Origin: SAR202 cluster bacterium bin87
GTDB taxonomy: Bacteria > Chloroflexota > Dehalococcoidia > Lucifugimonadales > UBA3495
NCBI GenBank assembly: GCA_002238825.1
Contig: MPNC01000002.1
Span: 611,180-675,179, forward strand
Direction: 5' to 3'
Length of the DNA: 64,000 nucleotides
Shown here: positions 28,764 to 34,862 of the stretch, in pieces
How positions within the stretch are numbered: the stretch's first letter is position 1
Layout: each line of letters starts with the position of its first letter
Notes under the pieces: model-generated
The model's input: the letters and a program-made list of their open reading frames with translations, nothing else
What the model was told of the DNA's origin: nothing
The model's database searches: none
Made by a program: the position numbers and the translations under genes

Positions 28764-30614
28764 ATGAATTTCCGACGAATCGGGAGACCGCAATGGTTGT
28801 TGCTGGTTAGCTGCGCAGCCTTGCTGATGGTCGGGCTGGCTTGCGGAGGAACCGCTGCGCCCACATCCAGCACCACATCAAGCCAGGCCGAGCAATCCCA
28901 ACCGGCGGCCTCCGATAGTTAGGCCGCGGCGGCTCCGACTCCCACATTCACGCCCATCCCAACTCGGGTACTTGACGCCACGCCGACCGCGATTCCTGTT
29001 CCAACCGCCGTGGCAATCGACGAACGTCCCGATTGGTGGCGCGAAGGCGAGGGCAAGCACTACCGTGGAACATTCCCGATGGTCGGCAACAGCAACCCCG
29101 GCTTCTGGGACGTCCACTACGGTGGTTCGCTCAACACCACTCTCATGCCGTCCAGCCCCCGGTTCAACCAACTGGTTGAGTACAACCCGGTCAGTCCCAC
29201 CGAGATCATCGGCGACCTTGCGACTACCTGGGACGTCAATGACGACGGCACCGAGTTCACCTTCCATCTGAACGAAGCCACTTGGTCCGACGGCCAGCCC
29301 GTCACCGCCGAGGACATCAAGTTCAGCCTGGACCGCATCACGCTGCCCGGCGCGCAACGGGCTCGCACCGGCTTCCTGCGCGCGTTCTACGAGCACCAGT
29401 CTGCAGAAGTGGTGGACGACAAGACCGTCAAGGTACCGCTGAAATTCCCCGCTCCCACCTTTATGCCCAACCTTGCTTCGGACTACATGAAGATGTACCC
29501 CAAGCACATCGCCGAAGATCTGACGCAGGAAGAGGCCAACCAGCCCGAGTCGCTGATCGGCTCCGGACCGTGGCTGTTTGGCGGGTGGCAGAAGGACGTG
29601 AGCTACACCTTCGACCGCAATCCCACGTACTTCAAGTCGGGCCGTCCTTTCTTCGACGGCATCATCGTGTACCTGATCCCTGATACCGCGCGGCGGATCG
29701 CCGCCCTTCAGGCAGGCCAGGTTCTGGGCACATTCAACCCCTTCACCGGAGTGAACCGTCCCGAAGACATGGCCATCCTGGAAGAGCAAACCGACGGCCA
29801 GATGCGCGCCCTGATCCTGCCCGACTCCGGCTTCGAGGCCTACTTCCTGAACAACGCCAAGCCGCCGTTCGACGACGAACGCGTGCGCCAGGCCTTCTAC
29901 CTCGGTCTCGACCGCGATCTTGGAATTGAGCGGGCCGTCAAGGGCTTCGGCACGCCGGGAACGTACTTCGCTCCTGGAGTTGTCGAAAGCATGGACGACC
30001 TGCGGGCCAACAACTCCGCCTTCGCCGAAGATCGCACCGCAGCGATTGAGCAAGCCAAGGCGCTGTTGGCGGAAGCCGGGTATCCGGACGGCATCAAGGT
30101 CAAGATGAACACACGCAACTCCAACCCCACGCTGCCGGCCGCCGAAGTCGCCAGTGCGCAACTGCGCCGGGACGTGGGTATCGACATCGAAATTCTCCCC
30201 AACGACCTCGCGACCACCTATGCGGTGATGCGTGACGGCACCCACGAAATCTCCACGGTGGGCACCGGTATCATCCTTCGGGATCCGGCAGACATCCTGA
30301 ACCAGTTCTACCTCCAGGACGTGCTGAGGAACCCACAAAACTGGCAGGATGACCGGATCGACGAGCTCATCGACCTCCAGAACCGCGCCATCGACCAGCG
30401 TGTCCGCCAGGATCATCTGCAAGAAATCGCCGACATCCTTCACACTGGCAAGAGCCATCTGGTGGTCTATTTCTGGGGATCCAACGGCGGAGCGCTGGAC
30501 TACCGCATCCGGAACTTCCACACTCCACCGACCCTCCAGCAGGTCCACAAGTGGGACCACGTCTGGTTTGACCCCGACCGCGAACAGCCTGCAGAATCCG
30601 GATACCAGCCGTAG
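28764..30614 (+). pseudogene. ABC binding lipoprotein 2, interrupted by one in-frame TAG
   Basis: This is a paralogue of the binding protein at 24592. The first part is intact: GGAGGG, ATG 28764, signal peptide and lipobox GLAC (Cys27), then a Ser/Gln/Thr linker. An amber codon at 28920-28922 stops it after 52 residues. The same frame then continues without a break through a Thr/Pro linker and the complete binding domain (RFNQLVEYNP, WSDGQPVTAEDI, LNQFYL) to TAG at 30612. GTG 29010 could start the domain, but without a signal peptide. The body shows no other damage, so the stop is recent, suppressed, or a sequence error. It is not UGA and no Cys is expected at this linker site, so selenocysteine does not apply. 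The operon's permeases downstream are intact. Confidence 0.85.
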
Positions 30615-30681
30615 TCTCGCCAGCAGTCTGGCTACGTCTATGGGACCGCACCAGACACGACCGTGAAATAAAAGGACAAAG

Positions 30682-30721
30682 GCGGCCGGCCCAATAGTCT
30701 CTTGACGCTGGGACCGGCCGC
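30682..30721 (+). promoter_or_regulatory. Intercistronic hairpin between binding protein and permease
   Basis: A GC-rich stem of 11 bp with one bulged base (GCGGCCGGCCC at 30682-30692 with 30710-30721) and a 17-nt loop, with no T run. Such hairpins after binding-protein genes usually protect the upstream message or reduce read-through to the permease genes. Confidence 0.6.
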
Positions 30722-30773
30722 ATGTCCATCAATTTGTCGTTGGCGTTATTCGCTGACGACATGAGGCCAGACC

Positions 30774-31736
30774 ATGTACGCCTACATTGCCCGCCGCGGC
30801 CTGCTATTCATACCCACCATTCTCCTGGCAACTATCCTGGTGTTCGCGCTGTTCTGGATCGTTCCCGGAGACGCGGCCATGATGATCCTCACCGGCGAGG
30901 AAGGTGACGGCGGCAAAGTTACCCAGGCGGACCTCGACAACCTCAAGCGTGAACTCGGGTTGGACCGCCCAGTGTACATCCAGTACGGGGAATGGCTTTG
31001 GAAAATCCTGCAGGGAGACTTCGGGGACTCCGTCTGGTACGGCACTCCGGTTCTGGATGACCTGAAGGACCGGTTCTTCATCACCCTGGAACTCTCGGTG
31101 TTGGCCATAATCCTGGCCTTCATCGCTGCGGTGCCGTTGGGCGTGCTTTCAGCAGTCAAGCAGGATACGTTCCTGGACCACATCAGCCGGCTGTTGGCCC
31201 TTGTGGGCATAGCTCTGCCCACCTTCTGGCTGGGAATCCTGGTGATTTATGGGTTGACCTATTTGGCCGGGTGGCTGCCTCCTTTGGGCTATGCCACCTT
31301 GTGGGGCGATCCGTTTACCAACCTCCAGCAATTGATCTTCCCGGCGCTGGTTCTCGCCTTTCACGACATGGCATTCACGGCTCGCGTGGCCCGCTCGGCC
31401 ATGCTCGAAGTCATGCGCGAAGACTACATGAGAACCGCCCGGTCCAAGGGCCTGAACGAATGGATGGTCGTGGGGCGCCACGCGCTGAAAAACGCCCTGC
31501 TTCCGGTGATCACGGTTTCCGGCTACCAGTTCGGCCGGCTGTTGGGCGGCACCATCATCATCGAATCCATCTTCGTGATACCCGGTGTGGGCCGGTACCT
31601 GATCGACGCCATCATCCACCGCGACTTCGTCGTGGTTCAAGGTGTTGTCCTGCTCGCTGCCGCCGTGGTGTTGCTTCTTAACCTGGTCATTGACATCCTG
31701 TATGGAATACTGGACCCCAGGATCAGGTACTCGTAG
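30774..31736 (+). CDS. ABC transporter permease, DppB type, operon 2
   Basis: A 320-residue DppB/OppB-type permease, clearly paralogous to the one at 26576. It shares IPTI-L---I--WIVPGD near the N-terminus, the EAA-loop residues A-R-S-K-G-L-N with G-R-H-A-L-K-N, and the end LDPRIRYS. Six spans are predicted. GAGG precedes ATG 30774. It works with the DppC-type protein just downstream. Since the cognate binding-protein gene is broken by a stop codon, this transporter may be served by binding protein 1 or another one, or depend on suppression. Confidence 0.9.
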   Translation: MYAYIARRGLLFIPTILLATILVFALFWIVPGDAAMMILTGEEGDGGKVTQADLDNLKRELGLDRPVYIQYGEWLWKILQGDFGDSVWYGTPVLDDLKDRFFITLELSVLAIILAFIAAVPLGVLSAVKQDTFLDHISRLLALVGIALPTFWLGILVIYGLTYLAGWLPPLGYATLWGDPFTNLQQLIFPALVLAFHDMAFTARVARSAMLEVMREDYMRTARSKGLNEWMVVGRHALKNALLPVITVSGYQFGRLLGGTIIIESIFVIPGVGRYLIDAIIHRDFVVVQGVVLLAAAVVLLLNLVIDILYGILDPRIRYS

Positions 31737-31800
31737 GTTGCAGGCGTATCGGAACACCCTGCGCTTGCTGGCCAGTGTTCCGTGAGGAGTGTTCGTACTC

Positions 31801-32730
31801 ATGGCGAATCAACCCACTCAGCGCGTTGAAGTAGCGCCCCCGCCGCGCGCGGGGATGCTGCAGCCGGCCGCAGCCGGCCTCAGAGAGGTGAACCGGTTTG
31901 CGCGTCGCAAGCCCCTGGGCGCCATAGGCGGTCTCCTGGTGCTGGCGCTGGTGATCGTTGCCGTGTTGGCGCCGGTGCTTGCTCCATACGGAGCCCGCGA
32001 TCTCCCGGACAGCCGCCAGGGTGGTTCCACCGTCTACATCCCGCCCAATTCCCAGTTTCTGCTCGGCACCGATCACGTCGGGCGCGACGTTCTCAGCCGG
32101 TTGATTTACGGAGCGCGCATCAGCCTGTACGTCGGCCTGGGAAGCGTCCTCATCGGCATTACCGCCAGTTTCATCATCGGGGTGACCCTGACTTATGCCG
32201 GCGGCATCATCGACATGTCGTCTCAGCGTGTGGTCGATGCGCTCATGGCCCTGCCCGGCCTGATCATCGCGCTGGCGATTGTCGCGGTGCTCGGTTCTTC
32301 TTTGAACAACGTCATCCTCGCCATCGTCATCGGAATGATCGCTCCGGTGATCCGAACTGTGCGTTCGCAGGTTCTCTCGGTTAAAGAGCTCGACTATGTG
32401 ACGGCAGCCGTAGCGATCGGCGCGCCCCCATGGCGGATCGTTTTCCGGCATATTGTCCCCAACTGCTTGGCGATCTATCTGGTGTTGGCTACCTACTACC
32501 TGGGTTTCGCCATCATCATCGAAGCGTCTCTGTCGTTCCTCGGCGTCGGGGCTCCCCCAGACCAGCCCAGCTGGGGCGGAATGCTCACCCGGGCCGCCCA
32601 GGAGCACGTGCTGACCGCCCCGTGGGTCGGCATCTTCCCGGGCGTCGCAATCTTCGTAGTCGTGATGGGCTTCAATCTGCTGGGCGATGCCCTGCGCGAC
32701 GTGCTGGACCCCCGCCTGCGCGGACGCTAG
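31801..32730 (+). CDS. ABC transporter permease, DppC type, operon 2
   Basis: A 309-residue DppC/OppC-type permease paralogous to the one at 27568. Shared features are the RRKPLGAIGG start of TM1, the LLGTDHVGRDVLSRLIYG external loop, the EAA-type segment DYVTAAVAIGAPP and the end RDVLDPRLRGR. ATG 31801 is preferred over GTG 31789 because GAGGAG sits 10 bp before it. The stop is immediately followed (2 bp) by the TTG start of the DUF3179 selenoprotein candidate, so translation is probably coupled and the redox genes belong to this operon. Confidence 0.9.
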   Translation: MANQPTQRVEVAPPPRAGMLQPAAAGLREVNRFARRKPLGAIGGLLVLALVIVAVLAPVLAPYGARDLPDSRQGGSTVYIPPNSQFLLGTDHVGRDVLSRLIYGARISLYVGLGSVLIGITASFIIGVTLTYAGGIIDMSSQRVVDALMALPGLIIALAIVAVLGSSLNNVILAIVIGMIAPVIRTVRSQVLSVKELDYVTAAVAIGAPPWRIVFRHIVPNCLAIYLVLATYYLGFAIIIEASLSFLGVGAPPDQPSWGGMLTRAAQEHVLTAPWVGIFPGVAIFVVVMGFNLLGDALRDVLDPRLRGR

Positions 32731-32732
32731 GC

Positions 32733-34139
32733 TTGCTGACGCCAATCCGCAAACTGCTGACTGAAATCGCCGCCGGCCCGCTGTTCACGCTGGCCGGCAT
32801 AATTCTGCTGGTCTCTGTGATGCTGGCTTGCGCTCCGTCTGAAGACGCCTCCGGCAGCGAGCCATGGACGGTTCCACTGGCGGCAACCGATGCGCCCTTC
32901 CCCACGCTGCAACCCGCCGCCGACCTGCCTACCGCAGCGATGGCCGACCCAGCCAAACCGCTGCCCACCGCAGCCCTCGCGTCACCCGCCACCGCGCTGC
33001 CTGCGGCCACCTCTCTCCCGGCAGTAACCGAGGTCAACGTCCAGACAATCACCGCAGATGAGGCCGAAGAGGCCCGTACCCGCTACCAGCGCCTCCTTCG
33101 AGCGACCTGGGACACCGACTTCACGCGCACGACGATCGCCTTCGACGAGATCATGACCGGCGGGCCGCCCAAAGACGGCATCCCGTCGATCGACAACCCG
33201 CAGTTCGAATCAATTGCGGACGCTGACTTCTGGCTCGACGATCTCGAGCCCGTGCAGGTGGTCGATCTCAACGGCGATGTTCGCGCGTATCCGGTCCAGG
33301 TGATGGTGTGGCACGAACTGGTCAACGACACCGTCGGCGGCGAGCCGGTGGTCATCACCTTTTGACCACTCTGCAATACCGCCTTCGTGTACAGGCGGAC
33401 GGTTGACGGAACGATCCTCGACTTCGGTACCACCGGCGCGCTCCGCGACAGCAACCTGCTGATGTACGACCGCCAGACCGAGACGTGGTGGCAGGAAGTG
33501 GGCGGCGAGGGAGTGATCGGGCATTTCGCCGGCCGCAAGCTGGAGCAGCTCTACCTGTCCATTGTGTCGTGGGGAGATTTCAAAGCGGCCCACCCTGAAG
33601 GGCAGGTGCTTTCCCGACCCGACTCCGGTCGCGCCTACGGCAGTAACCCCTACGCCGGATACGACCGTCCGGGCAGCCAACCGTTCCTGTTCCGTGGCGA
33701 GGAAGACCCTCGCTTGCCGGCAGTGGAGCGGGTAGTGGCGGTGGAGCGCGGCAACGAAGCCTGGGCCGTGTCCTTCACGACGCTGGCCGAGGAGCGCGTG
33801 GTCACTACATCAGTTGCCGGCGAGGACATTGTGGTGTTCTGGTCACCGGGAACCGCGTCCGCGCTGGATTCCGGATCGATATCCCGGGGACGGGATGTGG
33901 GCACCGCCGGCATATTCTCGCCTCAGGGTCCCGACGGCAACTCGCTGACCTTCGCGCCGGACGCGGAAGGCCGCATCGTAGACCAACAGACCAGCAGCCA
34001 GTGGGACATATTCGGCCGCGCGGTAGACGGACCGCTGGAGGGCGCGAAATTGACCCCGGTGCCGGGCCGCATCGGCCAACTGTGGTTCTCCTGGGCAGTG
34101 TACCGGCCGGATACCGTCGTGTATCCCGCCACCGGCTGA
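32733..34139 (+). CDS. DUF3179 lipoprotein with in-frame UGA (selenoprotein candidate)
   Basis: A 468-residue reading frame of the DUF3179 family if UGA at 33363-33365 is read as selenocysteine (residue 211). The N-terminus has a lipoprotein signal peptide (lipobox MLAC, Cys33) and a Pro/Ala/Thr linker. Before the UGA the frame reads GGEPVVITF; after it, PLCNTAFVYRRTVDG. The family has a conserved C-P-L-C at this place, so the codon falls on the first Cys and gives U-P-L-C (Cys214). The downstream half matches the family: GVIGHFAGRKLEQL, then SWGDFKAAHPEG, then YGSNPYAGYD. A hairpin suited to a bacterial SECIS follows at 33379-33398. The start is TTG 32733, 2 bp after the ABC permease stop; the redoxin gene follows after 9 bp. 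The protein would be extracytoplasmic, membrane-anchored and redox-active. DUF3179 function is unknown. Confidence 0.85.
33379..33398 (+). promoter_or_regulatory. Predicted SECIS hairpin of the DUF3179 gene
   Basis: CCGCCT (33379-33384) pairs perfectly with AGGCGG (33393-33398); the 8-nt loop TCGTGTAC contains G. The loop begins 19 nt after the UGA, within the range known for bacterial SECIS elements, which lie inside the coding region just downstream of the Sec codon. Confidence 0.65.
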
Positions 34140-34148
34140 GCTACCGGC

Positions 34149-34862
34149 ATGGCGCGGCTTTGCTCGGTCATCGTGACCTTTGCCGTGGCGGTCGCCCTCT
34201 GCCTCGCAATGGTGGGTTGCCAGACACCGACCAACGACCCAGGCGCCGGCGACGCCCAGGCCGATCCGCCCAACATCGAGGCCACCGTGTCGGCCGCGCT
34301 GCGGTCCCTGGAAGAGACGCAGCCGGCGTCCTCAGTCGGTGGTACAAACCCAGCCTCCATGTCCCCGCCGTCTGCGGCGTCTGCCGCGACACCCGCCCTG
34401 CAACCGACGGCGCGGCTCCGGTCTGCGTCCGACGGAGCCGCGCAACGCCCGACGGCGCCAATGTTCGCGGGGACCTTCATGGACGGCAACGACTATCAGC
34501 TCGAGGACACCGTGGGCACCCCGACGTTGTTGATGTTCTGGGCTCCCTGGTGACCGCATTGCCAGCGGCAGTTGCCGGCTGTCCAGGGTTTCCACGAGGA
34601 GTACCACGGCGTCGACGCCGACATAGTGGGGATTGCCATCAGCGCTCCCGAGCCGGAGGTCCGCGCACTGATGGATAAACAGGGCCTGACCTTCCCGATC
34701 GCCCACGACCCGGACGGGCAACTCGCCACCGTATACGGCGTCTCCGGCGTGCCCTTCTACATCTTCATCGACAAGGCCGGTCGGGTCGCCCACACCATCC
34801 CCGGGGCACCGACCGACGTGAACACGATCCGGGGTTGGATCGAAGACCTGAAGGCGGAATAG
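34149..34862 (+). CDS. TlpA-like redoxin lipoprotein with in-frame UGA (selenoprotein candidate)
   Basis: A 237-residue thioredoxin-fold protein if UGA 34551-34553 is selenocysteine (residue 135). The N-terminus is a lipoprotein signal peptide (MVGC, Cys24) and a long Ala/Ser/Pro linker. The thioredoxin-like domain starts near 105. The active site reads FWAPW-U-PHCQRQLPAVQ, so UGA replaces the first (attacking) Cys of the W-C-x-x-C motif and Cys138 is the resolving partner. The later cis-Pro region GVSGVPFYIFIDKAGRV is intact, and the chain ends in a normal C-terminal helix. Without read-through the gene would give only a linker and a second ORF with no start signal. A hairpin lies at 34563-34581. 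The gene follows DUF3179 by 9 bp, so the two redox proteins are probably partners outside the membrane, for example in thiol-disulfide or peroxide chemistry. Confidence 0.88.
34563..34581 (+). promoter_or_regulatory. Predicted SECIS hairpin of the redoxin gene
   Basis: CAGCGGC (34563-34569) pairs with GCC, one bulged G, then GCTG (34574-34581). The apical loop AGTT has G in its second place and begins 16 nt after the UGA, the same distance as in the BtuF-like gene. Confidence 0.65.

What the first reader, a model, noticed from the sequence alone, without database searches (positions are those of the whole stretch)
32733..34139. DUF3179 protein as a membrane-anchored selenoprotein with U-P-L-C
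The UGA replaces the first Cys of the conserved CxxC of DUF3179, and the family sequence is intact on both sides. The lipobox (Cys33) places the Sec site outside the cytoplasm. The hairpin CCGCCT/AGGCGG starts its loop 19 nt after the UGA. DUF3179 has no assigned function; a Sec variant would be direct evidence that this CxxC is a redox centre. I cannot check whether a Sec form has been described.
Basis: partly seen in the sequence, partly recalled or inferred. Interest (0 to 1): 0.88.

Follow-up and report, generated by a model that had tools for sequence, protein, structure and literature searches.

The report
Selenocysteine DUF3179 lipoprotein with thioredoxin-like neighbour
A Chloroflexota bacterium reads a UGA codon as selenocysteine in an outward-facing lipoprotein of unknown function, and a thioredoxin-like selenoprotein gene lies directly behind it; selenocysteine forms of this family were predicted years ago, so this is a well-supported new member with a new clue to its redox partner.

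Summary
An in-frame TGA (33363-33365) replaces the first Cys of the DUF3179 CxxC in a gene intact on both sides (325.8 bits). Fourteen close homologues from other genomes all carry TGA there; the nearest Cys relatives carry TGC/TGT. The RNA hairpin fits the published bacterial SECIS model. It is complete in 35/41 TGA genes and 0/33 Cys genes, covaries at 6 of 7 pairs in sister clades, and coincides with the gene's minimum of synonymous change. The genome has SelA, SelB, SelD and tRNA-Sec. Sec decoding is near certain by comparison, not shown by experiment.

It is not new as a kind: DUF3179 (UxxC/T) has been a listed predicted selenoprotein since Zhang & Gladyshev 2007.

This tandem occurs only in two close genomes, but Cys-type TlpA genes lie beside DUF3179 in other families, once with a CcdA/DsbD-type membrane protein. 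The likely role is a thioredoxin-fed thiol/selenol redox step outside the cytoplasm (inference). DUF3179 is an internal duplication whose predicted fold resembles Rieske domains without their cluster motifs.

The parts
32733..34139 (+). DUF3179 (PF11376) lipoprotein gene with in-frame UGA; TTG start directly after the permease stop
   Evidence: 325.8 bits over the whole profile when TGA is read through
32829..32831 (+). Cys33 codon, lipobox VMLA-C (predicted lipid-anchored, extracytoplasmic)
   Evidence: PROSITE-type lipobox pattern, Cys kept in relatives where read
33231..33575 (+). N-terminal repeat of the DUF3179 domain (carries His194, Sec211, Cys214)
   Evidence: the two repeats align at 99.8% probability, E 1.8e-28; model
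33363..33365 (+). UGA (Sec211), first position of U-P-L-C; Cys214 follows
33379..33398 (+). SECIS-type hairpin CCGCCTT-CGTGT-A(C)AGGCGG, 7 bp with one bulge, apical-loop G at position 2, loop 20 nt after UGA
   Evidence: criteria from PMC13188914
33711..34094 (+). C-terminal repeat of the DUF3179 domain, without the Cys pair
34149..34859 (+). second Sec gene: ResA/TlpA-like lipoprotein (PF00578/PF08534), motif FWAPW-U-PHC
34551..34553 (+). UGA (Sec135) of the thioredoxin-like protein; a TGA form of this subfamily is in all 14 sampled genomes of the genus
34563..34581 (+). SECIS-type hairpin CAGCGGC-AGTT-GCC(G)GCTG, loop 16 nt after UGA
29010..32730 (+). upstream peptide-type ABC importer genes (SBP_bac_5, two permeases), syntenic with DUF3179 in the genus; functional link untested

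Best explanation
32733-34139 encodes a lipid-anchored, extracytoplasmic DUF3179 selenoprotein. Step 1 (strongly supported): SelB with tRNA-Sec, guided by the hairpin just after the codon, decodes UGA 33363 as selenocysteine, giving a U-P-L-C pair where relatives have C-P-L-C. Step 2 (inferred): the Sec/Cys pair cycles between selenol/thiol and selenenylsulfide, with Sec as the attacking residue. Step 3 (inferred): it is re-reduced by a membrane-anchored ResA/TlpA-type thioredoxin, here the Sec protein encoded directly downstream, which in some relatives is in turn fed by a CcdA/DsbD-type membrane protein. The substrate (a protein disulfide, a peroxide or another oxidant) is unknown.
For: Sec decoding: 14 close homologues from other MAGs carry TGA at column 211 while L015/L016 carry TGC/TGT; every sampled genome of the genus has the TGA form; a complete hairpin in 35/41 TGA genes against 0/33 Cys genes; 6 of 7 stem pairs change on both sides, 94.4% of cells paired against 27-54% when slid; zero synonymous change over codons 216-222 against a mean of 0.446, the lowest window of the gene; own genome has SelB 352.7 bits, SelA 544.5, SelD 373.1 (itself with one TGA) and tRNA-Sec with anticodon tca; the published SECIS criteria are met. 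Redox role: Sec replaces the first Cys of a CxxC invariant in a diverse set; Sec-ResA gene directly downstream with its own SECIS; thioredoxin-like genes within the flanks of 10 of 81 DUF3179 loci outside the genus, about 0.4 expected; contiguous DsbD_TM - Redoxin - DUF3179 in L170, and Redoxin - DUF3179 - thioredoxin in L171.
Against: No proteomics or biochemistry. The Sec-Sec tandem is found only in the window genome and one close relative (G254/L004); elsewhere in the genus the Sec thioredoxin lies apart. The background rate for thioredoxin neighbours is a rough estimate from family-wide hit density, related loci are not independent, and one of the ten (L065) lacks the CxxC. His194 near the Cys pair leaves a metal site possible. 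The association of TGA with SelB is weak over all genomes (p = 0.16; p = 0.035 among genomes at least 90% complete), since SelB is common in the class.
Confidence: 0.75

Rival explanations
1. Sec211 and Cys214, with His194 and perhaps other invariant residues, ligate a metal or cofactor instead of running a dithiol cycle; Sec tunes a metal site.
For: H85, E86, N89, D90, C102, C105, M135 and D137 (alignment numbering) are invariant; predicted folds of both repeats match only Rieske-type domains above background; the 2026 review notes that Sec may act as a metal ligand in some predicted selenoproteins.
Against: The Rieske C-x-H...C-x-x-H motif is absent and profile comparison with the genome's own Rieske proteins gives nothing. 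Thioredoxin and CcdA-type neighbours favour thiol chemistry.
Confidence: 0.2
2. The TGA is a real stop, a pseudogene scar, or a sequencing error in a Cys gene.
For: A TGA is formally a stop, and MAGs contain errors.
Against: The same TGA and hairpin in tens of genomes, conserved protein sequence after the TGA, no other stops, and full Sec machinery.
Confidence: 0.01
3. UGA is read through as another amino acid (a code change, TGA = W or G) in this lineage.
For: Some bacterial lineages reassign TGA (general knowledge).
Against: TGA also ends genes here, including this one (34137-34139); the recoding seen stands at Cys columns followed by SECIS-type hairpins; SelA, SelB, SelD and tRNA-Sec are present.
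Confidence: 0.01
4. DUF3179-Sec serves the upstream peptide-type ABC importer, for example by handling oxidised cargo, rather than a general thiol relay.
For: SBP_bac_5 and two permeases precede DUF3179 across the genus; the known SAO system pairs ABC importer parts with selenoproteins.
Against: The link was only seen within the genus, where synteny may be inherited; other families have different neighbours.
Confidence: 0.12

Closest known systems
DUF3179 domain-containing selenoprotein (PF11376, UxxC/T), predicted in the Olavius symbiont (Zhang & Gladyshev 2007, cited in PMC9312934 and PMC13188914)
   Same: same Pfam family, Sec at the first position of UxxC
   Different: a Chloroflexota lineage, nested among Cys relatives and apart from other Sec clades in the class, with a SECIS backed by covariation and a Sec-ResA gene next door. 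I could not read the 2007 paper itself.
Redoxin/TlpA-type selenoproteins (PF08534 UxxC and ResA-like entries in the PMC13188914 table)
   Same: the second gene is a thioredoxin-fold lipoprotein with UxxC
   Different: motif FWAPWUPHC; scores under the cut-offs of NCBI's ResA and WAxxUGC models; a Sec subfamily present throughout this genus
Selenoprotein operons such as SAO, Tso and grdA-grdB (PMC13188914, section 9)
   Same: neighbouring selenoprotein genes suggest a shared pathway
   Different: none of the operons named there contains DUF3179; here the pair is limited to two close genomes
Rieske-fold domains (for example PetC3, naphthalene dioxygenase ferredoxin)
   Same: both predicted repeats align best with this fold (Z 8.6 and 8.2; isolated N repeat Z 7.1, best unrelated row 4.2)
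   Different: cluster motifs absent, no sequence similarity found, Foldseek E 0.03 at best: a lead on fold only

Membership tests
DUF3179 (PF11376) | full-length profile match above the gathering score | tested here: met
   325.8 bits against 27, positions 1-292
bacterial selenoprotein gene | in-frame UGA aligned with a conserved Cys of Cys homologues | tested here: met
bacterial selenoprotein gene | SECIS: 4-16 bp stem, 3-9 nt loop with G in its first two positions, 16-37 nt after UGA | tested here: met
   7 bp with one bulge, loop CGUGU, 20 nt; covariation in sister clades; criteria
bacterial selenoprotein gene | SelA, SelB, SelD and tRNA-Sec in the genome | tested here: met
bacterial selenoprotein gene | Sec present in the protein | not testable with these tools
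   needs mass spectrometry or 75Se labelling
bacterial lipoprotein | signal peptide with lipobox and Cys | tested here: met
   pattern match IILLVSVMLAC and in relatives; processing not shown
ResA/TlpA thioredoxin family (second gene) | AhpC-TSA/Redoxin domain with CxxC (here UxxC) | tested here: met
   PF00578 82.0 bits, PF08534 77.1 bits
ResA subfamily of NCBIfam (second gene) | score above the subfamily cut-off | tested here: not met
   86.1 bits against 170: membership at the broad family level only
Rieske [2Fe-2S] protein | C-x-H and C-x-x-H cluster motifs | tested here: not met
   no such conserved motif in alignment A2
Rieske-type fold | fold | tested here: inconclusive
   VIA Z 7.1-8.6, Foldseek E 0.03 or more, modest models (pLDDT 73-77)
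SAO selenoprotein/ABC system | Sao family members | tested here: inconclusive
   no Sao model listed for the two Sec proteins in NCBIfam; the ABC proteins were not scanned there

The most novel reading that the evidence does not exclude
DUF3179 is a duplicated Rieske-like fold that has a surface Cys/Sec pair in place of an iron-sulfur cluster, and works as the terminal partner of an extracytoplasmic CcdA - TlpA/ResA - DUF3179 electron relay; in this lineage both soluble steps have been converted to selenocysteine, giving a two-selenoprotein relay outside the cytoplasm.
Probability: 0.3. Interest if true: 0.65.

Novelty: new member of a known kind. Interest (0 to 1): 0.45.

Why it matters
DUF3179 is widespread and without assigned function. 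A Sec form under strong RNA-level selection marks its CxxC as functionally important, and neighbouring TlpA/CcdA-type genes name a testable electron donor. Reading UGA as stop splits both genes, so this lineage's extracytoplasmic selenoproteins are easily missed in annotation.

Tried and rejected
Rfam scan of the locus found no known RNA family, which is uninformative because bacterial SECIS elements differ so much between genes. Sequence search of the PDB found no relative. Profile-profile comparison of either repeat with Rieske proteins of the same genome found nothing, so the Rieske likeness rests on predicted structure alone; I first thought U-P-L-C might sit where Rieske C-x-x-H sits, but the aligned ranges place it earlier in the fold, so that idea was dropped. 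Foldseek with the isolated N repeat gave no significant match. A general Sec-Sec tandem was rejected: it occurs only in the two closest genomes. The TGA/SelB association test was weak because SelB is common in the class. In neighbour scans the ORFs picked by length in L168, L169 and L172 gave no Pfam hits; some are wrong-frame ORFs. The 2007 source paper is not held.

Full report
WHAT IS THERE. The frame 32733-34139 (+, TTG start) carries one internal TGA at 33363-33365. Read through, the 468-residue product matches DUF3179 (PF11376) over the whole profile with 325.8 bits. The TGA stands at the first Cys of the family's C-P-L-C. The N-terminus has a lipobox ending in Cys33; relatives whose N-terminus the scan reached keep a lipobox Cys.

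IS THE TGA SELENOCYSTEINE? Four lines agree. (1) Conservation: 14 close homologues from other MAGs, titled Dehalococcoidia or Chloroflexi, all have TGA at this column, every sampled genome of the same genus has a TGA-bearing copy, and the nearest Cys relatives have TGC or TGT there. A second DUF3179 gene in the same genome (L002, 29% identical) also has TGA at this column, and a third, half-length copy (L003) has TGC. (2) RNA structure: at one fixed distance after the codon, 35 of 41 TGA genes have a complete 6-7 bp stem, against 0 of 33 Cys genes and 0.5% of shuffled segments. In 18 distinct sister-clade sequences 6 of 7 pairs change on both sides, 94.4% of cells are paired (27-54% when the partners are slid), and no shuffle of 500 reaches the covariation score. 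The loop is nearly always CGUGU. The element meets the published bacterial SECIS criteria quoted from PMC13188914. (3) Codon constraint: across 24 close sequences (some are duplicate records of one locus) there is no synonymous difference at codons 216-222, against a gene mean of 0.446, and the lowest 11-codon window of the gene lies on the hairpin. (4) Machinery: the genome has SelA (544.5 bits), SelB (352.7), SelD (373.1, itself with one internal TGA) and a tRNA-Sec with anticodon tca. Among DUF3179-bearing genomes at least 90% complete, TGA forms occur in 16 with SelB and in 0 of 11 without (Fisher p = 0.035; p = 0.16 if incomplete genomes are included). Step 1, Sec decoding, I hold at about 0.97; it is not shown by experiment.

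A SECOND SEC GENE. A few bases downstream of the stop, 34149-34859 encodes a lipoprotein of the AhpC-TSA/Redoxin family (82.0 and 77.1 bits), nearest to ResA among NCBI models but below their cut-offs. Its CxxC reads W-U-P-H-C, with TGA at 34551-34553. TGA forms of this subfamily occur in all 14 sampled genomes of the genus; the hairpin after the codon, with loop AGUU(G), is kept with some compensating changes, although the fixed-register count is weaker because some members use a bulged register. It fits the SECIS criteria with the loop 16 nt after UGA. The direct tandem with DUF3179 is found only here and in G254/L004.

WHAT IT MAY DO. The redox reading rests on three things. Sec replaces an invariant Cys of a CxxC. 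Thioredoxin-like genes occur near DUF3179 in other families: 10 of 81 loci outside the genus within short flanks, about 0.4 expected from a rough family-wide density; these loci are partly related to each other, and one of the ten lacks the CxxC. In L170 the order is DsbD_TM, Redoxin, DUF3179, contiguous and on one strand; in L171 it is Redoxin, DUF3179, thioredoxin. From established knowledge of CcdA/DsbD and TlpA/ResA proteins, this suggests that electrons pass from the membrane protein to the thioredoxin-like lipoprotein and on to DUF3179. That flow is an inference. The genus-wide neighbour upstream is a peptide-type ABC importer, whose connection is unknown.

FOLD. The DUF3179 domain is an internal duplication: profile comparison of the two halves gives 99.8% probability and E 1.8e-28, and only the first half holds the Cys pair. 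AlphaFold2 models are of medium quality (pLDDT 73.3 and 76.5). Both repeats match Rieske-type domains best (Z 8.6 and 8.2 in the full model; Z 7.1 for the isolated N repeat, where the rows down to Z 4.4 are Rieske-type and the best unrelated row is 4.2). Foldseek itself is not significant (E 0.03 and above), and the Rieske ligand motifs are absent. So this is a lead on fold; it does not make DUF3179 a Rieske protein.

EVOLUTION. In a tree of 102 sequences the window's Sec clade (24 Sec, one Cys) lies inside a large Cys group and apart from the other Sec clades; the tree needs at least four Sec/Cys changes, two of them forced by well-supported branches. Sampling was not random (TGA genes were fetched on purpose) and the tree was a quick one. 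The direction is not proven by the count, but the nesting favours a Cys ancestor for this clade.

KNOWN OR NEW. DUF3179 with UxxC/T is listed as a predicted selenoprotein in two reviews, which trace it to Zhang & Gladyshev 2007; that paper is not in the library. Only three held papers mention DUF3179. I found no description of the Chloroflexota clade, the covarying SECIS, the Sec-ResA neighbour, the internal duplication or the CcdA/TlpA context, within a library that lacks most subscription papers.

Noticed in passing
L002 (G000:C65:43621-44544, -): A second, distant DUF3179 gene in the same genome has TGA at the same column (Y-U-T-L-C) with its own 7-bp hairpin and loop CGUGU.
   Followed up: yes
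L003 (G000:C21:1247-1687): A third DUF3179 gene matches only the first half of the profile and has Cys; several genomes of the genus hold such half-length copies, in line with the domain being a duplication.
   Followed up: partly
G000:C32:485420-486088 (-): A second TGA-bearing thioredoxin-like lipoprotein gene (41% identical to the window's) elsewhere in the genome.
   Followed up: partly
L166 (G000:C42:681408-682328), about 6 kb beyond the window's end: SelD in this genome has one internal TGA, so it is probably a selenoprotein itself.
   Followed up: no
L163 (G000:C9:5397-5525): A weak partial Rieske match contains one TGA in frame; not examined.
   Followed up: no
L172 (G074:C140:47297-50350): A Cys-type DUF3179 gene lies directly upstream of selB.
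   Followed up: no
L171:3769-4407: A protein with a TNT domain (PF14021) is encoded near a DUF3179/thioredoxin cluster.
   Followed up: no
L067, L068: Two TGA-bearing DUF3179 genes (G027, G039) lack the common hairpin; they may use a differently shaped SECIS.
   Followed up: partly
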